In this document: positions 20,081-30,848 of the stretch, piece after piece
Layout: every line of letters begins with the position of its first letter
Numbering within the stretch: the first letter of the stretch is position 1
Assembly (NCBI GenBank): GCA_903858185.1
Contig: CAIOHT010000008.1
Location: 33,931-97,930, forward strand
Direction: 5' to 3'
DNA length: 64,000 nt
DNA from: an uncultured Caulobacterales bacterium
GTDB taxonomy: Bacteria; Pseudomonadota; Alphaproteobacteria; Caulobacterales; Caulobacteraceae
Position numbers and translations under genes: made by a program
Notes under the pieces: model-generated
The model's database searches: none
What the model was told of the DNA's origin: nothing
Seen by the model: the letters and a program-made list of their open reading frames with translations, nothing else

Positions 20081-21009
20081 AGCGCCTCCTGCTGGTTCTG
20101 GCCCTCGGCCTGGGCGGCTGCGGAGCGAAAACGCCGCAACTGGCCGCGCCGACGCGGGCCTGTCCGGGCGCCGCGCCGAGCGGCGAGGTCGCGCTCAAGG
20201 GCGGAACCTTCGTCCTCGGCGCCCGGCCTGAGCACGACGACGAGGGCCCGCCGCGCACCGTGACGGTCGGCCCCTTCTCGATCGACCGCACCGAGGTGAC
20301 CAACGCCCAGTTCGCCGCCTTCGTGGCGGCCACCGGCTATGTGACCCTGGCCGAACGCCGGCCGGATCCGAAGCTCTATCCCGGTGTCCCGGCGAGCAAG
20401 CTAAACCCGTCATCCCTGGTGTTCGTCGGGGCCGAGGGGCTGGGTTCGGGCGATCCGTCCGGCTGGTGGCGCATCGTCGACGGCGCCAGCTGGAAACATC
20501 CGGAGGGACCGGGCAGCACCATCGTCGGCCGCGAGCGCCATCCCGTGGTGCAGATCGCCTTCGACGACGCCCTGGCCTATGCCCGATGGAAGGGCCGTGA
20601 TCTGCCGACCGAGGCCGAATGGGAATTCGCCGCCCGGGCCGGGCTCGACGGCGCCCGTTATGAATGGGGCGACGACAAGCCCGCGCCCGGCAAGCCCCGC
20701 GCCAACAGCTGGCAGGGCGTGTTCCCGGCCGTCGACACCGGCGACGACGGCTACAAGGCCCGCACCGCGCCGGTCGGTTGCTATCCGACCAGCGCCTACG
20801 GGTTGTTCGACATGAGCGGCAACGTCTGGGAGTGGACCAGGGACTGGTACGAGGCCCCGTCCCCGAACGGGCGCAGCCACCTGATCAAGGGCGGCTCGTT
20901 CCTCTGCGCCGACAACTTCTGCTACCGCTACCGCCCGTCTGCGCGGCAGCCCGGGCCGCCGGATACCGGTTCGAGCCACGTCGGGTTCCGGACGGTGAAG
21001 CGGGGATAA
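20077..21009 (+). CDS. Formylglycine-generating enzyme (SUMF1/FGE family), lipoprotein form
   Basis: A 310-aa FGE-sulfatase domain protein. The active-site segment GGSFLCADNFCYRYRPSARQ holds the paired cysteines (277 and 282) of true copper-dependent formylglycine-generating enzymes. LPTEAEWEFAARAG, DMSGNVWEWTRDW and HVGFRTVK complete the family pattern. Its role would be to oxidise the Cys of the sulfatase CxPxR motif to formylglycine using O2. Unusually, it begins with a signal peptide and lipobox (LGGC, Cys at about residue 15), which puts it in the periplasm. The GTG start overlaps the TetR stop. The sulfatase at 14855 is the obvious client. Confidence 0.92.
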   Translation: MKRLLLVLALGLGGCGAKTPQLAAPTRACPGAAPSGEVALKGGTFVLGARPEHDDEGPPRTVTVGPFSIDRTEVTNAQFAAFVAATGYVTLAERRPDPKLYPGVPASKLNPSSLVFVGAEGLGSGDPSGWWRIVDGASWKHPEGPGSTIVGRERHPVVQIAFDDALAYARWKGRDLPTEAEWEFAARAGLDGARYEWGDDKPAPGKPRANSWQGVFPAVDTGDDGYKARTAPVGCYPTSAYGLFDMSGNVWEWTRDWYEAPSPNGRSHLIKGGSFLCADNFCYRYRPSARQPGPPDTGSSHVGFRTVKRG

Positions 21010-21040
21010 TCCTGCCCCTATCCCAAGCTCTCTTGGCATA

Positions 21041-21189
21041 CCCGCCCTGATGTCTTGACGGCCAGTGTTGCTCCGGCGGACGACCTGCTCAAGGACCGCT
21101 TCGCGGCCGCGCAGCGGCGACCCCGCAGGGGTCGTCCTTGACCAGGCCGACCGACCGGAGCGCATCATTCCATCAAGGCCAAAGGGCAA
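21041..21189 (+). repeat. 149-bp structured repeat, copy A
   Basis: The element runs from CCCGCCCTGATGTCTTGACGG to the ATTCCATCAAGGCC segment and beyond. The inner core (about 21088-21144, TCAAGGACCGCTTCGCGGCC...GGGGTCGTCCTTGA) is almost identical to the inverted copy at 30191-30339. The outer stem (GCTCCGG...CCGGAGC, 21070-21161) has a different sequence in the two copies but pairs in both. It fills the space between the FGE gene and the TauD-type gene. Confidence 0.9.
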
Positions 21190-21272
21190 TTGTCATCTGG
21201 CCCGAGGGGAGGATCGTTGCGCTGGGGATCGCCGCACGCGATCATGCGTCCAACGAGAAGGGGAGCTCTCAC

Positions 21273-22109
21273 ATGAGCGGGATCACGGTCCACCAGGTCG
21301 CCGGCGCGCTCGGCGCGGAGATATCGGGCGTCGATCTGTCCGGCCCGCTGTCCGACGAAACCATCGCCGACATCCGCGACGCCTTCACCCGGCACCAGGT
21401 GATCTTCTTCCGCGACCAGACCCTGACGCCGCAGCAGCAGCTGGCGTTCGGGCGCCGCTTCGGCCCCTTGAACATCCACCCCTACGTTGCCGGCATGGAC
21501 GACCATCCCGAGGTGATGGAGATCATCAAGGAGCCGACCGACCGGATCAATTTCGGCGGCGGCTGGCACTCGGACATGAGCTTCCTGGAGACGCCCGCGA
21601 TCGGCTCGATCCTCTATGCCGTGGAAGTGCCCGACTTCGGCGGCGACACCCTGTTCGCCAGCCAGGCGGCGGCGTTCGAGGCGCTGTCGCCGGGCCTGCA
21701 GAAGACGCTGGAGGGCCTCAACGCCATCCATTCCGCCGAGCGGGAGTATGCCCCCACCGGCGCCTCGGCCCAGAAGCGCGAGTCGATGAAGATCAGCGAC
21801 GCCGAAGGCATGGCCGGCCGCTTCGCCCATCCGATGGTCAAGGTCCACCCGGAGACCGGCCGCAAGGCGCTGTATGTCAATCCGGCCTTCACGATGAACA
21901 TCGAGGGCTGGAGCCGGCGCGAGTCGAAGCCGCTGCTGGACTACCTTTTCGAGCACAGCCGCAAGGAGGCCTTCACCTGCCGCTTCAGCTGGCGGCCGGG
22001 CTCGATCGCCTTCTGGGACAACCGCTCGGTCTGGCACTACGCGCTGAACGACTACCACGGCCAGCGCCGGCACATGCGCCGGGTGACGGTGGATCCGGTG
22101 GGGGGTTAG
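21273..22109 (+). CDS. TauD/TfdA-type 2-oxoglutarate-dependent dioxygenase
   Basis: A 278-aa Fe(II)/2-oxoglutarate enzyme. The HxD iron motif is in GGGWHSDMSF, the distal His in NRSVWHYALNDY and the oxoglutarate-binding Arg in HMRRVTVD. IFFRDQTLTPQQQLAFGRRFG is a typical family N-terminus. Members include taurine and alkylsulfate dioxygenases (TauD, AtsK) that release sulfite or sulfate, and TfdA. Its place beside the sulfatase locus makes a sulfur-related substrate attractive but unproven. ATG 21273 follows GGGAG; the frame upstream runs into the repeat. Its stop overlaps the convergent hydrolase stop. Confidence 0.88.
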   Translation: MSGITVHQVAGALGAEISGVDLSGPLSDETIADIRDAFTRHQVIFFRDQTLTPQQQLAFGRRFGPLNIHPYVAGMDDHPEVMEIIKEPTDRINFGGGWHSDMSFLETPAIGSILYAVEVPDFGGDTLFASQAAAFEALSPGLQKTLEGLNAIHSAEREYAPTGASAQKRESMKISDAEGMAGRFAHPMVKVHPETGRKALYVNPAFTMNIEGWSRRESKPLLDYLFEHSRKEAFTCRFSWRPGSIAFWDNRSVWHYALNDYHGQRRHMRRVTVDPVGG

Positions 22110-23800
22110 ACCACCTGCGTCGCCGTCCCCGCCACCACGTACCAGGTGACGAACAGGCCGCAGATCACCGCGCCGGGGACGTAGCTGCCGGTCCTCCGCC
22201 AGGTGAAGGTCGAGATCAGGGCGACGATGGCCATCAGCGGCAGGAACTGGATCGCCACCACCGTGCTCAGCGGGTCGAAGTCGGTCGGCAGACGGCCGGT
22301 GGCGAAGAACAGGCCGTAGTCGACGACAAGCAGCAGCAGGAAGCCCAGCGACATCGCCGCGATGGACGTGGCGTAGGTCTTCACCGGGCCGTCGCCAAGC
22401 ACCGGCAGCCGTCCGTGTAGCGCCCGCGTCGCGACGAGGAAGAAGGCCGTCAGCGGCAGGACATAGACCAGCGCGATCTTGAACTGCGACAGGCCGAACA
22501 GCTTGAGCGCCACCACCCAGAAGCGGAAGTCGACCTTGAACAGGGCGTCCATGGCGACGAGCGACAGGTAGCCGACCGCGACAGTGGCGACGGCGATCCC
22601 GACGGCCGGGACCCAGCGGTTGTCGAACGTCGCCATCGCCCGCTTGCGCCCGAACCAGCCGATGACGAGGGTCAGGGCCGCGTTGACCAGGGCCCAGACC
22701 ACCACCTGGTTGGTGATGCTCTGCGGCAGCAGCGCCGAGGGCTTGAGCAGCACCGTCACGGCGATGAAGGCCGGAAAGAAGGTCAGGACGGGCAGGAGGG
22801 CGGTGGTCGCGAGGCCGGCCCACCAGCGGCCGGTTCGCCATTGCACGGCCGCCTCCGGCTCGTGCCGCAAGGCCGCGAACACCGGGAGGCCCAGCAGGCC
22901 GTTGAAGGCGCCGAGCAGCAGCACCACAAACCCGATGAAGGCCACGCCGGTGGCGATCTCCTTCCAGATCCAGATCTGGTCGGCGGCCGGGCGGGGCGTG
23001 CCGCCCGTGAGGGTTTTGGCGAACCAGTCGGTCGCGTCGCCGACGGCGGCGGTCGAGATGTGGTCGCCGGGATGTGTGGTGACGGGCTGGGTCAGCCGCC
23101 GGGCGGTCCCGCCGGCGAGGTCGCCATAGACCCGGCCTGGAACGACGTCGGCCGTCGTACCGAACACCGTCTTCAGCTTCGGCGACGAGGCGACGTCCTG
23201 CGCCCGCTTCACGCCCCACATGATCGTGCTGAACTCGTCGTATTTGCTGAACACCAGCGCCATGTTGCGCGGCCAGACGGGCGTGCCCTCGGCGGCGAAC
23301 GGCGCGCCTGTCGAGGAGCCTTCCAGCACCACGGCCTTGTAGGCGTCCGGCATGGTCGCGGCCGCGGCCAATACGGTCCAGCCGCCCATGCTGTGCCCTT
23401 CAAGACCGATGTTGGCCTTGTCGACCGTCGGCAGGCTGCGCAGGTATTTCAGCCCGTCCGGCCCGCCGAAGCCGTTTGAGAAGGCCGCCCCGCCGCTGTA
23501 GCCGTGGCCGGTCTGGTCCATCGCCAGCACGACATAGCCGCGCCGGGCGAACTCGATGGCGAAGGCGCTCTGGGTCTCGCGGCTGTTGATGTAGCCGTGG
23601 ACGGCCAGGATGCCGGGCGCGGGGGTGGCGGCGGTGGCGGTCTTCGGCGTGTAGAGCAGACCGCTCATGGTCACGCCGCCGGTTCCCTTGAACCGCACGT
23701 CCGTGACGGTGATCCCGCCGGACGTCTGGACGGCGCTCGCCCACCATGACCCGGCCAGGACCAGCACCAGTCCGGCCAGAAACAGCCCCCATCTGCGCAT
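22106..23800 (-). CDS. Exported alpha/beta hydrolase fused to a multi-helix membrane domain
   Basis: A 564-aa protein. After a signal or anchor helix (residues 5-22), residues 35-270 form an alpha/beta hydrolase with AVHGY, nucleophile GHSMGGW, and HPGDH as the likely catalytic His. Residues 280-560 then give about eight hydrophobic helices. The hydrolase part should face the periplasm. ATG 23800 is chosen because GGGGAGA precedes it and the signal sequence starts there. The substrate is unknown; relatives are annotated as dienelactone hydrolase-like. Its end overlaps the dioxygenase gene by four bases. Confidence 0.82.
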   Translation of the reverse strand: MRRWGLFLAGLVLVLAGSWWASAVQTSGGITVTDVRFKGTGGVTMSGLLYTPKTATAATPAPGILAVHGYINSRETQSAFAIEFARRGYVVLAMDQTGHGYSGGAAFSNGFGGPDGLKYLRSLPTVDKANIGLEGHSMGGWTVLAAAATMPDAYKAVVLEGSSTGAPFAAEGTPVWPRNMALVFSKYDEFSTIMWGVKRAQDVASSPKLKTVFGTTADVVPGRVYGDLAGGTARRLTQPVTTHPGDHISTAAVGDATDWFAKTLTGGTPRPAADQIWIWKEIATGVAFIGFVVLLLGAFNGLLGLPVFAALRHEPEAAVQWRTGRWWAGLATTALLPVLTFFPAFIAVTVLLKPSALLPQSITNQVVVWALVNAALTLVIGWFGRKRAMATFDNRWVPAVGIAVATVAVGYLSLVAMDALFKVDFRFWVVALKLFGLSQFKIALVYVLPLTAFFLVATRALHGRLPVLGDGPVKTYATSIAAMSLGFLLLLVVDYGLFFATGRLPTDFDPLSTVVAIQFLPLMAIVALISTFTWRRTGSYVPGAVICGLFVTWYVVAGTATQVV

Positions 23801-23865
23801 CGTCGTCTCCCCCCGTCGAAGCAGGGAAACTGTATAGGCCCAATCCGGCATGCACGCGAAACCGC

Positions 23866-24570
23866 TCAGTGCGCGCCGGCTGGCTCCGGGATCAGCGGCC
23901 GGATTGCGTCGGCCCACAGCCGGTAGCCGCGTCCGGCCAGGTGGCGGCCATCAAATGTCAGATCCTGCGGCAGGAGCAGGTCCGGGGCGATCACCCGGTT
24001 CAGGTCCACATAGGTGCAGGCGCCCGTCTCGCAGAGCCGGCGGTTCAGCGCATTGAGCGCGGTGATCCGTTCGTTCAGCTTCGGCTGCCGGGTGTAGAGC
24101 ACCGACTGCAGATAGACTTGGCGGCCCTTGAGCTTGCCGACCGTCTGCGCGGTCCAGCCGGCCACCTTGGCCGGGGGGACCTGGAACGTGCGCAGGTCGT
24201 TCAGGCCGATCATCAGGAAGACCCGCTCCGCCGACGCCGGCGTCGAGGCCTCGATGCGGCCAAGGAGACCAAGCGCCGTATCGCTGCCAATCCCCCGGTT
24301 GGCCACGGAGGGACCCAGCCATTCGTTCCAGTTGCCGTTGGCGGTCAGGGAATCGCCGATCATGATGGTTGTAGGTCGGGACTTAAGCTCTCGAAACTGG
24401 CTGACCCGGCTGCGAAAGTGCTGCGACCGCATGGTATCAGGCACGCGTTCCCGGCGCAGCGCCTCGGCCTCCTGCCTGGCCTTGAACCCGGGGATGGCGC
24501 GACCGGCGCCGAAACTGATGGCCATCAGCCCGATGACCCCGATCAGCATAAGCCAGCGCGCCAAGCTCAT
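23866..24570 (-). CDS. SGNH/GDSL-family hydrolase, membrane-anchored
   Basis: A 234-aa esterase-type protein with an N-terminal anchor helix (residues 4-22). It has block I GDSLTANGNW (nucleophile Ser), GIGSDTALG, block III GLNDL, and block V DGRHLAGRGY with the catalytic Asp/His. It begins six bases after the acyltransferase gene, forming an operon. A deacylase or acyl-transfer partner in surface polysaccharide modification is the likely role. It acts in the periplasm. Confidence 0.87.
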   Translation of the reverse strand: MSLARWLMLIGVIGLMAISFGAGRAIPGFKARQEAEALRRERVPDTMRSQHFRSRVSQFRELKSRPTTIMIGDSLTANGNWNEWLGPSVANRGIGSDTALGLLGRIEASTPASAERVFLMIGLNDLRTFQVPPAKVAGWTAQTVGKLKGRQVYLQSVLYTRQPKLNERITALNALNRRLCETGACTYVDLNRVIAPDLLLPQDLTFDGRHLAGRGYRLWADAIRPLIPEPAGAH

Positions 24571-24576
24571 CTCCTC

Positions 24577-26451
24577 CTACTCCGCCAGGGCGCTGAATAC
24601 GCCGCGCTGACGCAAGGCAGCCGCGATGTAGCGCGACCCCTCGCCCGTCATATGTGCCCCGTCGTATTGGATCGGCGCACCGTTCGAAGTCGTCTTGCAG
24701 GTCTTTGCATCGCAAAGGGCGTTGACGACCGAATAGTAGGGGATGCCGGTCTCCGCGGCCTTGGCGGCCATCAACGCATCAACCTGGCGCGGGCCCGGCT
24801 TGCGATGACGGTCGAGGATTGATGGGTCCTGCCGTTTCGCAGCAAGGTTCAGGAGGCGCGGCGCCTCCTGGTCATACTGCACCAGCGGGCCGACCCAGAT
24901 GACCTTCATTCCCATGGCGCGGATGCGTTGCGCCGCCCTGGCGACCGGTTCGACGTCATCGGCCTTCCAATTGCCCATCAGCACAACAGCGTCGACGGGG
25001 CGTCCGGGCAGGAAGTCCTCATAGACCCGCTTCGTCAGCTCATCGCAGCGGTCGTAGGTCGGACCGGTCTGGACTGGGAGCGGTTTGCAGCTCGCCGCCG
25101 TGGCCTGGAGGAAATGATACTCGGGGAAGACCTCGTGCAGGCCGAGCCAGAGGTTGGCGGCGTGGCTGTCTCCGATGATCAGGATGTTCGGTCGATCCCC
25201 GGCGGGCGTCAGGCACGCGGCGTCGTCGAGGCGCGAATCCTTGCGCTTCCACAGCAGGCAGATCCCGCGGCGTTGATTGATGTCGGCGTTGTAGCTCGCG
25301 TACCTCGCGTACGGACCGGCCTGGTTCGGCAGCACGTCGGGCAGGCCCTTGGTGGCGAACAGAACGGTGGCCAGCGCGGCAATGGCCAGAGCGGCGACAC
25401 CGAGAATCGTCATCACCTTGCGCGTCGGCATCCGCTTGCCGCGAAACGGCTGTTCGACGAAGCGCCACGTCAGCCAGCTGGCTATGACCGACAGGCCGAT
25501 CACGACGATGCCGGCGCCGATCTTCGAGTCATAGGGGAAGAAGGTCCAGCCCATCCGCTGGAAGGTCAGGATCGGCCAGTGCCACAGATAGAGCGAGTAG
25601 GAGATCAGCCCGAGGGCGACCATCGGCTTGAGCGACAGCAGTCGGCTGGCGAGGTTGGGGCCCGATGCGCCGGCATGGATCAGGGCCGCCGCGCCGAGAC
25701 AGGGCGCAAGCGCGCCGATCCCGGGGAAGGGCGTCAGGCCGTTGATCAGCAGGATCGAGCCCGCGACCAGCGCGAGGCCGGCGAGTCCGAGCGCTTCGCG
25801 CCCGAGCCGCGATGTGACCTTCGGCACGGCGCCGATCGCCAGCAGTGACCCGGTCAGCAGTTCCCAGGCCCGGCTTGGCAGCAGATAGAAGCCCGCCGTC
25901 GAGTCGTTGAGGGCCCCGTAGGTGCTGATCGCCAGCGAGACGGCGAACAGGCCCCAGAACACCAGGGCGAGGGAGGCTTTCCGGCGCGCCAGGAAGACCA
26001 CCAGCAGCGGGAAGACCAGGTAGAACTGCTCCTCGACCCCCAGCGACCAAGTGTGCAGCAGGGGCTGAGCGTCTGCCCCACGACCGAAATAGTCGAGGGC
26101 GAAGGTGAAGTAGATGTTCGAGATCGAAGCCAGGGCATAGAGCGTCGTTTTGCCGAGGTTCTCACGGTCTGACGGTGCCAGCGCGAAGATCGACAGAACG
26201 AGGAACGTCGCCAGTACCAGCAGCAGCGCGGGCGCGATGCGCCGCACCCGCCGCTCGTAGAAGCCGGCGATCGAGAAGGTCCCGGCAGCCTGCTCCTGGA
26301 CGATCAGGCTGGTGATCAGAAAGCCGGAAATGACGAAGAAGATGTCGACCCCGACAAAGCCGCCGGTGCTGATGCCGATATGAAAGAGCACGACCGGGAT
26401 GACGGCGACGGCGCGCAGGCCATCGACATCGGAACGATACGTCAAGGACAT
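24577..26451 (-). CDS. OafA/YrhL-type acyltransferase with C-terminal SGNH domain
   Basis: A 624-aa protein. Acyltransferase-3 membrane domain with ten or so helices (YRSDVDGLRAVAVIPVVLFHIG, GFVGVDIFFVISGFLI, RRVRRIAPALL, HTWSLGVEEQFYLVFPLL), then a periplasmic SGNH domain (IIGDSHAANLWLG; final DGAHMTGEGS). Such enzymes O-acetylate lipopolysaccharide or other cell-surface glycans. The start is ATG 26451, where the family pattern begins; the open frame upstream to 26853 is antisense to the GST gene. Paralogous to the protein at 41713-43569. Confidence 0.92.
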   Translation of the reverse strand: MSLTYRSDVDGLRAVAVIPVVLFHIGISTGGFVGVDIFFVISGFLITSLIVQEQAAGTFSIAGFYERRVRRIAPALLLVLATFLVLSIFALAPSDRENLGKTTLYALASISNIYFTFALDYFGRGADAQPLLHTWSLGVEEQFYLVFPLLVVFLARRKASLALVFWGLFAVSLAISTYGALNDSTAGFYLLPSRAWELLTGSLLAIGAVPKVTSRLGREALGLAGLALVAGSILLINGLTPFPGIGALAPCLGAAALIHAGASGPNLASRLLSLKPMVALGLISYSLYLWHWPILTFQRMGWTFFPYDSKIGAGIVVIGLSVIASWLTWRFVEQPFRGKRMPTRKVMTILGVAALAIAALATVLFATKGLPDVLPNQAGPYARYASYNADINQRRGICLLWKRKDSRLDDAACLTPAGDRPNILIIGDSHAANLWLGLHEVFPEYHFLQATAASCKPLPVQTGPTYDRCDELTKRVYEDFLPGRPVDAVVLMGNWKADDVEPVARAAQRIRAMGMKVIWVGPLVQYDQEAPRLLNLAAKRQDPSILDRHRKPGPRQVDALMAAKAAETGIPYYSVVNALCDAKTCKTTSNGAPIQYDGAHMTGEGSRYIAAALRQRGVFSALAE

Positions 26452-26502
26452 TCCCAACCCCGGCCGCCGCACGCCCGTGAGGAAGTGCTCTTCCCGTGCG
26501 AC

Positions 26503-26515
26503 TATACGGTATAAT
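26503..26515 (+). promoter_or_regulatory. Promoter-like TATAAT overlapping the dyad TATAC-G-GTATA
   Basis: In the 108-base divergent space between the acyltransferase and the GST, TATACGGTATA (26503-26513) is a perfect dyad that overlaps a -10-like TATAAT (26510-26515), 45 bases ahead of the GST start. No good -35 is visible, which fits an activated or repressed promoter. Confidence 0.35.
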
Positions 26516-26559
26516 CCCGGGCTGACAGCCCCGGCGCCGGGGCATCCCGGGGGGCGATC

Positions 26560-27225
26560 ATGATCATACTGTTCCACTGCCACGACGCCCGTTCGTTCCG
26601 ACCGCTCTGGGCGCTGGAGGAACTCGAACTTCCCTATGACCTGCGGATGTTGCCGTTTCCGCCGAGGTTCCTGAAGAAGGAATACCTGCAGGAAAATCCG
26701 CTGGGTACGATCCCGCTGCTGGTGGACGGCGAGACGCGGATGACCGAGTCGGCGGCCATCGTGGAGTATCTGTCGCGGCGCTACGGCAAGCCGGGCGGCC
26801 TGGCCGTCGAGCCCGATGAACCCGGGTTCGGCGCCTGGCTCAACGCCCTGCATTTCGGCGAGGCGACCCTGACGTTCCCGCAGACCCTGGTGCTGCGCTA
26901 CACGCGGCTAGAGCCGGAGGCCCGCCGGCAGCCGCAGGTTGCCGACGACTATGCCAAATGGTTTCTCGCCCGGCTGCGCGGGCTTGACGCGATCGTCAGC
27001 CAGGCGGAGTTCGTCGCCGCGGGCCGGTTCACGGGCGGTGACATCTCGGTCGCCTATGCCCTCCTGCTGGCCCGGTCGCTCGGACTGGCCGACCGCTTCC
27101 CGCCGGCGGTCGCCGACTACTGGGCGCGGATGCAGGACCGGCCCGGCTTCAAGCGCGCGAAGGCGTCGCAATCGGCGGCGTCGGTCGCGCAGGGGCTGAC
27201 CGCCGTGCCGGTCGATCAGCTATAG
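26560..27225 (+). CDS. Glutathione S-transferase family protein
   Basis: A 221-aa protein with an N-terminal thioredoxin-fold GST domain (LFHCHDARSFRPLWALEELELPYDLR; NPLGTIPLLVDGETRMTESAAIVEYLSRRYG, the cis-Pro and glutathione-binding Glu-Ser region) and an alpha-helical C-terminal domain. The enzyme would conjugate or reduce electrophiles with glutathione. It is followed 11 bases later by the nucleoside hydrolase gene, which may share its transcript. Substrate unknown. Confidence 0.88.
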   Translation: MIILFHCHDARSFRPLWALEELELPYDLRMLPFPPRFLKKEYLQENPLGTIPLLVDGETRMTESAAIVEYLSRRYGKPGGLAVEPDEPGFGAWLNALHFGEATLTFPQTLVLRYTRLEPEARRQPQVADDYAKWFLARLRGLDAIVSQAEFVAAGRFTGGDISVAYALLLARSLGLADRFPPAVADYWARMQDRPGFKRAKASQSAASVAQGLTAVPVDQL

Positions 27226-27236
27226 ACGTCCGCAGC

Positions 27237-28175
27237 ATGAGCGCGCGCCCCCTGATCATCGACTGCGACCCTGGCGTCGACGACGCCGTCGCCCTGTTGC
27301 TGGCCTTCGGCGCGCCTGAGGCGCTCGATATCCTGGCGATCACGACGGTGGCCGGAAATGTCGCCGCCGACCTGACCGCCCGCAACGCGCGGCTGATCCG
27401 CCAGATCGCCGCCCGTGAGGACGTGCCCGTCCATGTCGGCGCATCCGCCCCGCTGGTCCGGCCGCCGATCATCGCCAGCCATTTTCATGGCGAGTCAGGG
27501 CTCGGGACGATGGCCGTGTTCGAGCCGACCGCGCCTGTGGCGGAAGGAGACGCCGCCCGGGCGATCATCGACATCGTGATGAACCGCCCTGTCGGCTCGG
27601 TCTCGATGGCGGTTACCGGTCCGATGACCAACCTAGCGCTGGCGATCCAGCGGGAACCGGCTCTGGCCGCGCGACTGGGGCCGGTCGTTGTGATGGGCGG
27701 CGCCCGCCGTGAGGGCGGCAACATCACCGCCTCGGCCGAATACAACATCTATGCCGACCCGGATGCGGCGGACGTCGTGTTCCGCTCGGGGGCAAAGACC
27801 GTCGTCCTGGGCCTCGACGCGACCCACCAGGTTCGGGCGACCCCGGACCGGGTCGCGGCGGTCAAGGCGATCGACACCCCGGCGGCAAAGGCCGTCGCGC
27901 AACTTTTCGACTTCGCGGTCTGGACCGAACAGACCCATGTCGGCGGCGACAGCCCGCCGCAGCACGACCCCTGTACGATCCTCTATCTGCTGGCGCCGCA
28001 GCACTTCACCGCCGTGCCCGTGGACCTGCAGGTCGAAACGCAGTCGGCCCTGACCATGGGCCACACCGCCGTCGAGTTCCGCCTCGCCGACGCCGCGACC
28101 GCAACCTGCCAGTGGGTGACGGAGGTCGATCATGAGGCGGTGTTCGCCCTGATGCTGGAGATCTTCGCCCGATGA
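27237..28175 (+). CDS. Inosine-uridine-type nucleoside hydrolase
   Basis: A 312-aa N-ribohydrolase. LIIDCDPGVDDAVALLLA is the calcium-binding Asp cluster of the IU-NH family, with TTVAGNV, TGPMTNLALAI, VVMGGA and SAEYNIYADPDAA also in order. It cleaves nucleosides to free base and ribose. The stop overlaps the ribokinase start (ATGA), so released ribose would be phosphorylated by its partner. No signal peptide is present, so it acts in the cytoplasm. Whether it prefers uridine or purines cannot be told; a Rut uracil-degradation cluster lies 2 kb downstream. Confidence 0.92.
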   Translation: MSARPLIIDCDPGVDDAVALLLAFGAPEALDILAITTVAGNVAADLTARNARLIRQIAAREDVPVHVGASAPLVRPPIIASHFHGESGLGTMAVFEPTAPVAEGDAARAIIDIVMNRPVGSVSMAVTGPMTNLALAIQREPALAARLGPVVVMGGARREGGNITASAEYNIYADPDAADVVFRSGAKTVVLGLDATHQVRATPDRVAAVKAIDTPAAKAVAQLFDFAVWTEQTHVGGDSPPQHDPCTILYLLAPQHFTAVPVDLQVETQSALTMGHTAVEFRLADAATATCQWVTEVDHEAVFALMLEIFAR

Positions 28176-29026
28176 CCGCGCCGCTGATCACCGTTGTGGG
28201 GTCGGTAAACCTCGACTTCGTCGCCACGGCGAAAACCCTGCCCGCGCCCGGCGAGACGGTCACGGGCGCGACCCTGGCCCGCTATCCCGGTGGAAAGGGC
28301 GCCAACCAGGCGCTGGCCGCGCGGCGACTGGGCGCGGACGTGCGGATGATTGCCCGCGTCGGTGCTGACGCGATGGCCGATGAGGCGCTCGCCCTGCTGA
28401 AGGCCGAGGGCGTCGATCTGTCCGGCGTCGCGGTCGATCCTACGGCTTCGACCGGCGCGGCCCTGATCGCTGTGGACGCAGAGGCCGAGAACCAGATCGT
28501 CGTGGCCTCCGGGGCCAACGCCGCCTTCCTGCCCGAGCACCTGCCGGCGGCGATCGACGGCGCGCTGATCTGCCAGATGGAGCTGCCGGCGGAGACAGTC
28601 GCCGCCGCCGTGGCCCGGGCGTCCGGGTTCGTGTGCGTCAACCTGGCCCCGGCGCTCGACGTGCCCGACAGCGTGCTGCAGCGGGCCGATCTGATCATCG
28701 TCAACGAAGGCGAGGCCGAGGTCTACGGCAAGCGCCTGCATGGGCTGAAGGGCCTGGTCGCGATCACCTGGGGCTCGCGCGGCGCGGGCCTGTTCCGCGA
28801 TGGCGCGCGGGTCGCCACCGCCGAGCCGCCGGAGGTGGATGCCGTCGACACGACCGGCGCGGGGGATGCGTTCGTTGCCGCCCTGACCGTGGCCATGCTG
28901 GAAGGCCAGACGCCCGAGCGGGCGCTGGCCTTCGCCTGCGCCGTCGGAGCGCTGACGGCGACGAGGGCGGGCGCGCAACCCTCCTTGCCGACCAGAGCCG
29001 CGGTGGAGGCGCGGTTGCGCGGCTGA
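28172..29026 (+). CDS. rbsK: Ribokinase (PfkB family)
   Basis: A 284-aa PfkB sugar kinase. VVGSVNLDFVATAKTLPAPGET, YPGGKGANQALAARRLGA (sugar site) and DTTGAGDAFVAAL (anion hole and catalytic Asp) are the ribokinase signatures. It converts ribose to ribose 5-phosphate with ATP. Four-base overlap with the nucleoside hydrolase supports a two-step salvage unit. A hairpin at 29031-29057 follows the stop. Other PfkB substrates such as deoxyribose cannot be excluded. Confidence 0.9.
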   Translation: MTAPLITVVGSVNLDFVATAKTLPAPGETVTGATLARYPGGKGANQALAARRLGADVRMIARVGADAMADEALALLKAEGVDLSGVAVDPTASTGAALIAVDAEAENQIVVASGANAAFLPEHLPAAIDGALICQMELPAETVAAAVARASGFVCVNLAPALDVPDSVLQRADLIIVNEGEAEVYGKRLHGLKGLVAITWGSRGAGLFRDGARVATAEPPEVDAVDTTGAGDAFVAALTVAMLEGQTPERALAFACAVGALTATRAGAQPSLPTRAAVEARLRG

Positions 29027-29030
29027 GTCC

Positions 29031-29057
29031 GGGGACAAGCACTGGAGTGAATGTCCC
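29031..29057 (+). terminator. Possible hairpin after ribokinase
   Basis: GGGGACA ... TGTCCC pair across a 14-base loop, followed by TGTTTG, four bases after the ribokinase stop. It also looks like a degenerate half of the palindrome at 10013-10089, so it may be a repeat remnant used as a terminator. Confidence 0.4.
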
Positions 29058-29095
29058 TGTTTGAGGCCCCCGCCAGTTGGGTCTAGCCTGTCCCC

Positions 29096-30019
29096 ATGAC
29101 CCGATCCGTTCCCGAACTGAGCCTCAGGGCCTTCACCGAGGGCGACGCCGCCCAGCGCGGGGCCTTCTCCGACGCGATGATGCGCGGCCTGCAGGACTAC
29201 GGCTTCTTCGTCCTTAAGGATCACGGCGTGCCGCTGGAGTTGTTGCAGCGCGCCTACGCCGAGGCGGAGGGGCTGTTCGCCCTGCCGGAGGCGACCAAGC
29301 GCCAGTACGCGAAGGGCATGCGCGGCTATACGCCGTTCGGCGTCGAGCACGCCAAGGACAGCGGCCATCCGGACCTGAAGGAGTTCTGGCAGGTCGGCCA
29401 TGATCCGTCGGCGGAGGCCGGCGACGGCGTCGAGCCCAATGTCTGGCCGGCCGAGGCCCCCGGCGTGCAGGCGGTGTTCCAGAGCCTGTTCGGCGCCCTG
29501 AACGACACCGGCATCACCCTGCTGCGCGCCCTGGCGCCGAAGCTGGGTCTGGCGAGTGACTTCTTTGACGACAAGGTGCGCTACGGCACGTCGCTGCTGC
29601 GCGTGCTGCACTACCCGCCGCTCGCGGCCGATGCCAACCCGAACGCGGTGCGCTCGGCGGCGCATGAGGACATCAACTTCCTGACCATCATGGTCGCCGC
29701 CAAGGGCGCGGGGCTGGAGCTGCTCGACCGCGACGGGACCTGGCTGCCGGTGGTCACCGAACCGACCAACCTGATCGTCGACAGCGGCGACATGCTGGCC
29801 CGGATGACCAACGGCGTTATCCCGGCCACGACCCACCGGGTGGTCAACCCGACAGGGCCGAACGTGAGCCGCTACTCGATGCCGTTCTTCATGCACCCGA
29901 CGCTGGAGACCTCGCTGGCCGTGCTGGAGAGCTGCGTCGGCGACGGTTCGAAGTTCGAGCCGGTGACGGCGGGGGCGTTCCTGGACGAACGGCTCAGGGC
30001 GATCGGGTTGAAATCCTGA
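29096..30019 (+). CDS. Isopenicillin N synthase-like Fe(II)/2-oxoglutarate oxygenase
   Basis: A 307-aa IPNS/DIOX family protein. A DIOX_N domain (residues 5-120, LQDYGFFVLKDHGVP) is followed by the double-stranded beta helix with AAHEDINFLTI (His-x-Asp), TTHRVVNP (second His) and RYSMPFF (RxS oxoglutarate-binding motif). Bacterial members hydroxylate or desaturate diverse small molecules; a beta-lactam role is not implied. A palindromic repeat begins two bases after its stop. No neighbour defines its substrate. Confidence 0.88.
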   Translation: MTRSVPELSLRAFTEGDAAQRGAFSDAMMRGLQDYGFFVLKDHGVPLELLQRAYAEAEGLFALPEATKRQYAKGMRGYTPFGVEHAKDSGHPDLKEFWQVGHDPSAEAGDGVEPNVWPAEAPGVQAVFQSLFGALNDTGITLLRALAPKLGLASDFFDDKVRYGTSLLRVLHYPPLAADANPNAVRSAAHEDINFLTIMVAAKGAGLELLDRDGTWLPVVTEPTNLIVDSGDMLARMTNGVIPATTHRVVNPTGPNVSRYSMPFFMHPTLETSLAVLESCVGDGSKFEPVTAGAFLDERLRAIGLKS

Positions 30020-30020
30020 A

Positions 30021-30171
30021 CCCCTCCTCCTCGATGGAGGAGGGGCAGGGGTGGAGGTGTGGCCAACTCAGTTGGGTAATGGGCTCTGTTTGGCGCGGAG
30101 CCTCTCGCGCGCTGCCGGAAACACCCAGCCCCCACCACCATCCCCGGCCCTTCCTCCATCGAGGAGGAAGG
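30021..30171. repeat. Inverted repeat with CTCCTCGATGGAGGA arms
   Basis: The arms at about 30021-30062 and 30125-30171 are near reverse complements (CCCCTCCTCCTCGATGGAGG.. and ..CCTCCATCGAGGAGGAAGGG), and each is itself a hairpin. Together with structured repeat copy B it fills the 301-base space between the oxygenase stop and the kinase stop; no gene is seen there. Confidence 0.85.
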
Positions 30172-30190
30172 GAGAAGAAATGATGCTGCC

Positions 30191-30339
30191 TTGCCCTGAA
30201 GGCCTTGATGGAATTGGAGCTCTGCCAGGGGTCTTGGTCAAGGACGGCCCCTGCGGGGCCGCCGCGCCGCGGCCGCGAAGCGGTCCTTGAGCAAGACCCC
30301 TGGCAGAGCAAAGCTGGCCGTCAAGACATCAGGGGCGGT
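30191..30339 (-). repeat. 149-bp structured repeat, copy B (inverted relative to copy A)
   Basis: Reverse complement of copy A at 21041-21189. The outer stem 30219-30309 (GCTCTGCCAGGGGTCTTG / CAAGACCCCTGGCAGAGC) is perfect over 18 pairs and unlike the stem sequence in copy A. The core (TCAAGGACGGCCCCTGCGGG...CGCGAAGCGGTCCTTGA) matches. The conserved flank CCGCCCCTGATGTCTTGACGG overlaps the 3' end of the kinase gene and supplies its stop codon. Confidence 0.9.
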
Positions 30340-30848
30340 GCGCCTGCGGCGCTGTTCGATGCAGTTATCGCTGCGATGGCACGTTCCAGTGCGGCTTGGT
30401 CGCGGACGACATGGCAGTCGTCTCGAACCGCTAAAGCGCTGAGGATGCCGGGCCTTACGTTGATCGGGAACCTCCAGATGATCTTGATGAGCCTGGGAAT
30501 GATCAGGATTTCAGGACAGTTCTCCGGCAGGCCGGGTCGGCTGCGAAACAGATACTTCCAGTTCCGCCCGGCGCATCGAACGAAGGACGTCGCCCGGGAT
30601 ACATCGAGGAAAATCACATAGTCCGCTGCATCGAGGACGGTTCGCGAGACGCCGTCGATAACCCAGTGGGGCCGGGCGACCAGGTCGGCTTCGCAATCCC
30701 TGCGCCAGTCCGCGGGGCTCTTTCGCCAGCCGGGTCGCCAGACGATCTGGTCGAGGCCGTAGACCGGCAGGCCCAGGCTGCGCCCGAGCGTCGCGGCCAG
30801 GGTGGACTTTCCGCTCCCGGCGTTTCCGGTGATGAAGATCCGGGTCAT
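30321..30848 (-). CDS. P-loop kinase, topology-modulation/adenylate kinase-like
   Basis: A 175-aa protein with Walker A GNAGSGKSTLAATLGRSLG at residues 8-15 onwards, then LPVYGLDQIVWRPGW and WVIDGVSRTVLDAADYVIFLD. This is the pattern of small FlaR/topology-modulation-type ATP-binding proteins and nucleotide-kinase relatives. The true substrate is unknown. It starts ten bases after rutA and could be the last gene of that operon. Its last codons and TGA lie inside repeat copy B, so the C-terminus may have been replaced or trimmed by that element. Confidence 0.8.
   Translation of the reverse strand: MTRIFITGNAGSGKSTLAATLGRSLGLPVYGLDQIVWRPGWRKSPADWRRDCEADLVARPHWVIDGVSRTVLDAADYVIFLDVSRATSFVRCAGRNWKYLFRSRPGLPENCPEILIIPRLIKIIWRFPINVRPGILSALAVRDDCHVVRDQAALERAIAAITASNSAAGAPPLMS

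What the first reader, a model, noticed from the sequence alone, without database searches (positions are those of the whole stretch)
21041..30339. Two copies of a 149-bp element whose outer stem changes sequence but keeps its pairing
Seen directly: the element at 21041-21189 and its inverted copy at 30191-30339 share a nearly identical inner core and outer flanks (CCTGATGTCTTGACGG and ATTCCATCAAGGCC). Between them the stem sequence is unrelated: GCTCCGGCGGACGACC.. in one, GCTCTGCCAGGGGTCTTG in the other. Yet both form a long helix, with 18 consecutive pairs in the second copy. Even a single mismatch next to the core falls at the same place in both. Such compensatory change implies selection on structure, or a copying mechanism that makes new palindromes. 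It could be a structured RNA, a DNA hairpin recognised by a protein, or a non-autonomous element.
Basis: seen in the sequence. Interest (0 to 1): 0.75.

Follow-up and report, generated by a model that had tools for sequence, protein, structure and literature searches.

The report
Caulobacter dispersed DNA cloverleaf repeat
The two copies belong to a large family of scattered DNA hairpins in Caulobacter-related bacteria that keep a cloverleaf fold while their sequence changes and whose centre can flip over in place, probably because DNA copying jumps between the hairpin's arms.

Summary
The own genome holds 16 sites. A covariance model finds the repeat in 47 of 75 genomes of the genus and 47 of 199 drawn from the family; of 289 drawn across the class, only this one and two weak hits match. 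Each copy is a nested palindrome: outer stem, variable 17-18 bp stem, a recurrent C·C or G·G mismatch, an 8-bp stem (TCAAGGAC/GTCCTTGA), then three triloop hairpins, a cloverleaf. Arms pair with their own partner better than with other copies' arms (0 of 20,000 permutations).

New: the core inverts in place. The window's second copy and its orthologue in a related genome match at 34 of 37 core positions only after inversion. Loops are mostly C(GNA)G or its complement (346 of 417). Arms and hairpins show no preference for G·T wobble. Copies are enriched between convergent genes; no target duplication was detected; presence is unrelated to Y1 transposases.

Best reading: a MITE/REP-like dispersed palindrome acting as DNA, kept paired by replication template switching plus selection for a foldable, mismatched hairpin. 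The mobilising enzyme is unknown.

The parts
21035..21197 (+). First copy of the repeat (GGC ... CATC), core in N orientation (short hairpin first)
   Evidence: no copy at the orthologous place in genome G024, which carries a different palindrome there
21070..21088 (+). Left arm of the variable stem (first copy), ending with the mismatched C
21089..21141 (+). Core of the first copy: TCAAGGAC, three triloop hairpins, GTCCTTGA
21142..21161 (+). Right arm of the variable stem (first copy), with bulge and mismatches
21167..21175 (+). ATTCCATCA, invariant 9-mer on the 3' side in the 42 aligned copies (the pattern that found most of them required TTCCATCA)
30182..30344 (-). Second copy of the repeat, core in N orientation; orthologous copies in five other genomes, two of them with the core inverted
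30238..30290 (-). Core of the second copy: TCAAGGAC, three triloop hairpins, GTCCTTGA

Best explanation
A dispersed, non-coding, MITE/REP-like palindromic repeat family of Caulobacteraceae that acts as DNA. A single strand (or an extruded cruciform) folds into an outer stem, a variable stem with recurrent mismatches, a fixed 8-bp stem and a cloverleaf of three mini-hairpins. SHOWN: the family; the fold by covariation; arm-by-arm co-change; core inversion at the second copy's own site; loops that swap to their reverse complement when the core is inverted; no detectable target duplication; enrichment between convergent genes. INFERRED: (1) arms stay matched, hairpins change on both sides, and cores flip because replication switches template between the two arms (homogenisation and spacer inversion); (2) on top of this there is selection for a foldable DNA substrate, since the 8-mers, ATTCCATCA, the mismatch beside the core and the G..A loop bases are kept; (3) the family spread, at least formerly, by an enzyme that recognises the hairpin and is not known.
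For: Covariation: 27 of 55 pairs change on both sides, 162 both-side cells against 42.6 in shuffles and at most 34 when slid. Own-partner arms pair best. In-place inversion: the G024 orthologue of the second copy matches the window core at 34 of 37 positions when inverted, 14 of 37 when not. 6 of 17 orthologous-site groups contain both orientations; in two of them (the window's site and L133/L170) the arms are of one type, so inversion is clear; in the other four the arms differ more and replacement by another copy is not excluded. Loop class follows orientation in 116 of 130 copies that could be parsed: N short TNC 69/76, fixed GNA 62/76; I short GNA 37/40, fixed TNC 35/40; the long hairpin in I is split 18 GNA, 18 TNC, 4 other, as if it also flips alone. 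Closest pair per group: 13 both-side against 4 one-side changes among 122 pairs of equal-length variable hairpins, and 7 of 34 hairpins changed length. Triloops C(GNA)G/C(TNC)G in 346 of 417 hairpins. No wobble preference in arms and hairpins. Mismatch in the first two pairs beside the core in 135 of 139. Copies up to 95% alike at different places of the own genome. Placement of 87 copies: 42 convergent, 37 tandem, 8 divergent, against background 114, 347, 106 (crude gene calls). Template switching between inverted-repeat arms homogenises arms and inverts spacers: PMC8604942 (abstract and passages); it can create and maintain hairpins: PMC8794818 (passages).
Against: Mismatches at arm positions 1-2, 6 and 9 persist (6 and 9 mismatched in 43% and 53% of copies), which free homogenisation should erase. 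At the second copy's site the six genomes show six different states at arm pair 6, four of them mismatched, so much change there is stepwise. Both-side changes per pair (13 of 122) do not exceed flank divergence (13.6%), so concerted mutation is not proven by rate. Nine printed members from nine other genomes of the genus have about 27 perfect pairs and no mismatch beside the core (L268-L271, L273-L277), so the mismatch is not universal. The outer stem has T·G pairs. Ectopic conversion between copies could also replace cores. No mobilising enzyme found; PF01797 (Y1) not detected here and not associated with the repeat. The scan that supplied most copies required the exact 8-mers and TTCCATCA, so their conservation there is by construction; among 38 copies found by similarity, 34 have both 8-mers exact.
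Confidence: 0.55

Rival explanations
1. Selection alone on a structured RNA (a bidirectional 3'-end or terminator-like hairpin, or a non-coding RNA): compensatory mutations restore pairing after stepwise changes.
For: Strong folding as RNA on both strands; strong covariation; enrichment between convergent genes; stepwise states at one arm pair of the second copy's site; T·G pairs in the outer stem.
Against: In arms and hairpins 11 one-sided against 154 both-sided cells and no excess of G·T over other mismatches; triloops of a DNA-stable class (hyperstability of GNA triloops in DNA is recalled, not tested); core and loops invert; no Rfam hit on the element; no T enrichment in the 14 bases after the 3' edge (tables, 77 copies).
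Confidence: 0.12
2. Selection alone on a DNA hairpin recognised by a protein (transposase or chromosome-binding protein), without any special mutational mechanism; inversions arise by rare recombination between the arms.
For: Conserved 8-mers, ATTCCATCA, recurrent mismatch positions and G..A loop bases; both-side change rate not above flank divergence; six states at one arm pair in six genomes.
Against: Both-side changes outnumber one-side changes 13 to 4 in closest orthologues, 7 of 34 variable hairpins change length, 26 of 51 loops differ, and core orientation differs in 6 of 17 closest pairs.
Confidence: 0.2
3. A REP/BIME-type element mobilised by a Y1 (IS200/IS605-like, RAYT) transposase.
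For: Hairpin with mismatches, no target duplication detected, near gene ends.
Against: No PF01797 match in the own draft genome; repeat present in 14 of 22 genomes with and 33 of 53 without Y1 (Fisher p = 1); 0 of 30 scanned Y1 loci (of 33 match rows) carry the core. Published GTAG/CGTC REPs are single 20-40 bp hairpins (PMC3733652, abstract and passages).
Confidence: 0.06
4. Ectopic gene conversion among copies: whole cores or stems are replaced from other copies at conserved blocks, so arms change together. It can act together with the best explanation.
For: Different stem subfamilies occupy the same orthologous site, e.g. L114, L198 and L132; four of the six groups with both core orientations have dissimilar arms.
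Against: It does not by itself create the many distinct well-paired stems; at the second copy's site five of six genomes share one arm type with private changes, and cores of both orientations occur with those arms.
Confidence: 0.12

Closest known systems
CIR (CcrM-associated intergenic repeats) of Caulobacter and other alphaproteobacteria
   Same: Intergenic, over 100 bp, inverted repeats, many copies, Caulobacter
   Different: CIRs carry a conserved GANTC in an exposed loop and consist of two arms joined by a linker (section on CIR in PMC2229807). Here GANTC is in 4 of 139 copies and the element is one nested palindrome. The original CIR paper was not held, so its sequences could not be compared.
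REP/BIME palindromes with GTAG or CGTC tags
   Same: Dispersed short palindromes with short loops; CGTC REPs also lack a dedicated transposase
   Different: REPs are 20-40 bp single hairpins (abstract and passages of PMC3733652); this is about 160 bp with three hairpins in a cloverleaf and an invertible core
Bacterial MITEs (Correia, ERIC, RUP, Rickettsia palindromic elements)
   Same: Short, repeated, palindromic, mostly intergenic
   Different: Several have terminal inverted repeats with target duplication (table passage of PMC2229807); no duplication was detected here
Template-switch (quasipalindrome) mutation
   Same: Homogenised arms, inverted spacers, paired changes in one event (PMC8604942, PMC8794818; passages)
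   Different: Described as a mutational process at inverted repeats; here it would act at nested levels on a whole repeat family
AAV-type terminal repeats with flip and flop forms (recalled, no call)
   Same: A stem carrying small hairpins that occur in two orientations
   Different: Dispersed inside chromosomes, no replication protein known, no sequence relation tested

Membership tests
CIR repeats of Caulobacter | Conserved GANTC (CcrM site) in the repeat | tested here: not met
   4 of 139 copies contain GANTC; 34% expected by composition
CIR repeats of Caulobacter | Two stem-loop arms joined by a linker | tested here: not met
   Single nested palindrome closed by an outer stem
CIR repeats of Caulobacter | Sequence similarity to CIR1-CIR4 | not testable with these tools
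   Paper PMC166474 not held
REP/RAYT system | Cognate Y1 transposase gene flanked by the repeat | tested here: not met
   None detected in own genome; 0 of 30 scanned Y1 loci of the genus carry the core
REP/RAYT system | 20-40 bp hairpin tagged GTAG or CGTC | tested here: not met
   Element about 160 bp; the base tables at its ends show GGC and CATC (used as anchors) and no GTAG or CGTC consensus (77 copies)
MITE | Non-autonomous dispersed short repeat at unrelated places | tested here: met
MITE | Target-site duplication | tested here: not met
   No convincing excess of matching flanks in the 77 of 130 copies that had both anchors; ends uncertain by a few bases
MITE | Parent transposon with the same ends | not tested
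   Only Y1 transposases were searched; the gene between two copies on contig C68 looks like a tRNA methylthiotransferase by inspection
Structured RNA (Rfam family) | Match to a curated covariance model | tested here: not met
   the second region gave only hits below cut-off on the neighbouring repeat
Template-switch substrate | Arm homogenisation and spacer inversion in place | tested here: inconclusive
   Inversion pattern clear at the second copy's site and both-side changes exceed one-side ones, but arms also change stepwise and no event was observed

The most novel reading that the evidence does not exclude
A mobile DNA family whose transposition substrate is a single-stranded cloverleaf with a recognised mismatch, copied by a snap-back or rolling-hairpin step that flips the core (flip/flop) each time it is processed, run by an enzyme of a kind not yet known; sequence turnover with kept pairing would then be a by-product of its own life cycle.
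Probability: 0.15. Interest if true: 0.85.

Novelty: new variant of a known kind. Interest (0 to 1): 0.55.

Why it matters
Covariation is usually read as proof of a functional RNA. Here strong covariation comes with in-place core inversion, no preference for wobble in the arms and hairpins, and DNA-type triloops, which points to DNA folding and perhaps template switching. The family offers many copies per genome and orthologous sites at which the rate of hairpin rewriting can be measured, and it is a caution for RNA-discovery pipelines. It also asks which enzyme spread a cloverleaf repeat through Caulobacteraceae.

Tried and rejected
Structured RNA: Rfam at gathering on the whole window (the same search twice) and at E up to 1 on both regions gave nothing on the element; the six hits are below cut-off and lie on the neighbouring repeat. 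Y1/RAYT transposase: no association. Autonomous parent between two inverted copies on C68: the gene there looks like a tRNA methylthiotransferase (by inspection). Plasmids and phages: no match with the first copy. Virus contigs: 3 pattern matches with the same printed sequence and no paired arms, dropped as chance. Target duplication: none detected. Clean empty sites: of 24 candidate rows several repeat one place, several still contain a copy, and others hold different palindromes or unalignable DNA, so exact insertion points stay unsettled. Literature: six searches aimed at the element listed no description of it; subscription papers are not held, so prior description is not excluded.

Rows dropped before counts: of 126 pattern matches, five were left out (L147 Arthrobacter, L162 archaeal MAG, L222-L224 virus contigs); L147 and L162 were looked at afterwards and lack paired arms. 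121 plus 38 copies gave 159, 139 distinct. Seed sequences for A2 and A3, apart from the window's two, were chosen from copies with three perfect triloop hairpins, so hairpin pairing is partly by selection; one search uses 126 of 139 without that filter. One search counts arm pairs without gaps, so bulges inflate arm mismatches. In one search, 19 of 116 copies could not be placed and 10 were called inside genes, by crude gene calls. Notebook slip: my last notebook entry counts the own-genome sites as 12 plus 3; searches show 13 and 16.

The rivals' odds overlap with it and with each other.
Full report
CHECK OF THE OBSERVATION. RNA folding z-scores are -6.2 and -6.3 for the first copy and -8.4 and -8.6 for the second on the two strands, with none of 200 shuffles as stable. 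The second copy has 18 unbroken pairs; the first has mismatches and a bulge. The mismatch beside the core is C·C in both. Aligned with other copies, the conserved block runs from GGC to CATC, about 21035-21197 (+) and 30182-30344 (-).

A FAMILY. A similarity search of the own genome gives 13 full-length places and two weak partial ones; a covariance model raises this to 16 sites. A pattern scan of public genomes stopped at its limit with 112 stretches, 110 of them from records titled Caulobacter, Caulobacteraceae or Caulobacterales. The model matches 47 of 75 genomes of the genus at E 1e-4, 47 of 199 drawn from the family at 1e-6 (8 of 22 genera), and of 289 drawn across the class only the own genome plus two weak ones. 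Plasmid and phage collections gave nothing.

ANATOMY. From outside in: an outer stem; an internal loop; a variable stem of 17-18 pairs; a mismatch; an 8-bp stem TCAAGGAC/GTCCTTGA; and a core that splits, without a spare base, into three hairpins with triloops in 117 of 139 copies. The middle hairpin is nearly fixed (GCCGC/GCGGC); the other two vary in sequence and length but stay paired. Of 417 loops, 346 are C(GNA)G or C(TNC)G, the middle base being free. With DNA parameters the cloverleaf core of the second copy is -19.2 kcal/mol against -20.1 for its optimum. That GNA triloops are unusually stable in DNA is recalled, not tested. In 135 of 139 copies one of the first two pairs beside the 8-bp stem is a mismatch: 117 only C·C, 14 only G·G, 4 others. 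Positions 6 and 9 are also often mismatched (43% and 53%), positions 3-5 almost never. Nine printed members from nine other genomes of the genus have about 27 perfect pairs and no such mismatch.

COVARIATION. On 42 copies, 93.6% of cells pair, 27 of 55 pairs change on both sides, 162 cells do so against 42.6 in shuffles, and sliding the partners drops this to 34 or less; 32 copies give the same picture. In the arms and hairpins 11 cells are changed on one side and 154 on both; the outer stem has more T·G pairs. Arms pair better with their own partner than with others (0 of 20,000 permutations). Relatedness is not removed by these controls, and all seed copies but the window's two were picked for perfect hairpins. 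Without that filter, 1149 of 1164 pairs of the two variable hairpins are Watson-Crick, 6 G·T, 4 A·C, 5 other; in the arms G·T (39 of 1390) lies below G·A (67) and G·G (54) and beside C·C (36). An RNA under selection should show G·U as the leading intermediate; arms and hairpins do not.

ORTHOLOGOUS SITES. The window aligns with a G024 contig across the region. The first copy has no counterpart there; another palindrome sits in its place. The second copy has an orthologue whose core is inverted: 34 of 37 core positions match after inversion, 14 without, and one arm pair is T-A in one and G-C in the other. Among 130 copies with both flanks there are 17 orthologous groups. The second copy's site is shared by six genomes, two with an inverted core; at arm pair 6 these six show six states (T-A, G-C, G·A, A·C, G·G, A·G), four of them mismatched, which speaks for stepwise change there. 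Six groups hold both core orientations; in two the arms are alike, so inversion is clear, in four replacement by another copy is possible. Loop classes swap with orientation, as a true inversion requires (116 of 130 copies parsed). In the closest pair of each group, 13 of 122 hairpin pairs changed on both sides and 4 on one, 7 of 34 variable hairpins changed length, 26 of 51 loops differ, with 13.6% flank divergence. Paired changes thus exceed single ones but not the flank rate.

SURROUNDINGS. Of 116 copies, 87 could be placed between two genes: 42 convergent, 37 tandem, 8 divergent, against 114, 347 and 106 in the background; 19 could not be placed and 10 were called inside genes by a crude method. 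No target duplication was detected in 77 of 130 copies with clear ends. 'Empty' places often hold other palindromic repeats. Copies up to 95% alike occur at different places of the own genome, so spread is not all ancient.

MECHANISM. Template switching between inverted-repeat arms is described as a process that homogenises arms and inverts spacers (PMC8604942, abstract and passages) and as a source of paired changes in hairpins (PMC8794818, passages). It explains arm matching, the scarcity of one-sided changes in hairpins, and inversion at loop and core level. It does not by itself explain the kept mismatches, the 8-mers, ATTCCATCA, or the G..A loop bases; those suggest selection for a recognised DNA hairpin. 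The enzyme is unknown: PF01797 is not detected in the own genome, is not associated with the repeat across 75 genomes, and none of 30 scanned Y1 loci carries the core.

WHAT IS KNOWN. Nearest are CIR repeats (section read), which this fails on GANTC and architecture, direct sequence comparison being impossible, and GTAG/CGTC REPs (passages), which are far shorter single hairpins. Searches listed no description of this element; subscription papers are outside the library.

VERDICT. Observation confirmed and enlarged. A new variant of a known kind (dispersed palindromic repeats), with an unusual cloverleaf and an invertible core. An RNA function is unlikely.

Noticed in passing
window 30019-30178: A second, different dispersed palindromic repeat of about 160 bp next to the second copy; one further near-full copy in the own genome (C68:38043-38197) and at least 14 other places in G024.
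   Followed up: partly
L102 (G024 contig C50), place matching window 21005-21289: A different long palindrome (GGGGACAGCTTACC ... GGTAAGCTGTCCCC) occupies the place where the window has its first copy; similar GGGGACA palindromes sit at other 'empty' places.
   Followed up: no
window 30321-30344: A minus-strand reading frame (30321-30848) ends inside the repeat, whose outer block supplies the stop codon.
   Followed up: no
L017 and L114; L215 and L182: At two shared places the whole element lies in opposite orientation in different genomes; either whole-element inversion or separate insertions.
   Followed up: no
G000 C11:29131-29247 (L254): A divergent member with different outer and variable stems and an altered 8-mer (TCAAGGCC) but the same plan.
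   Followed up: no
139 copies of the repeat: GANTC sites are rarer in the repeat (4 of 139) than composition predicts (34%), perhaps reflecting avoidance of CcrM sites or shared ancestry.
   Followed up: no
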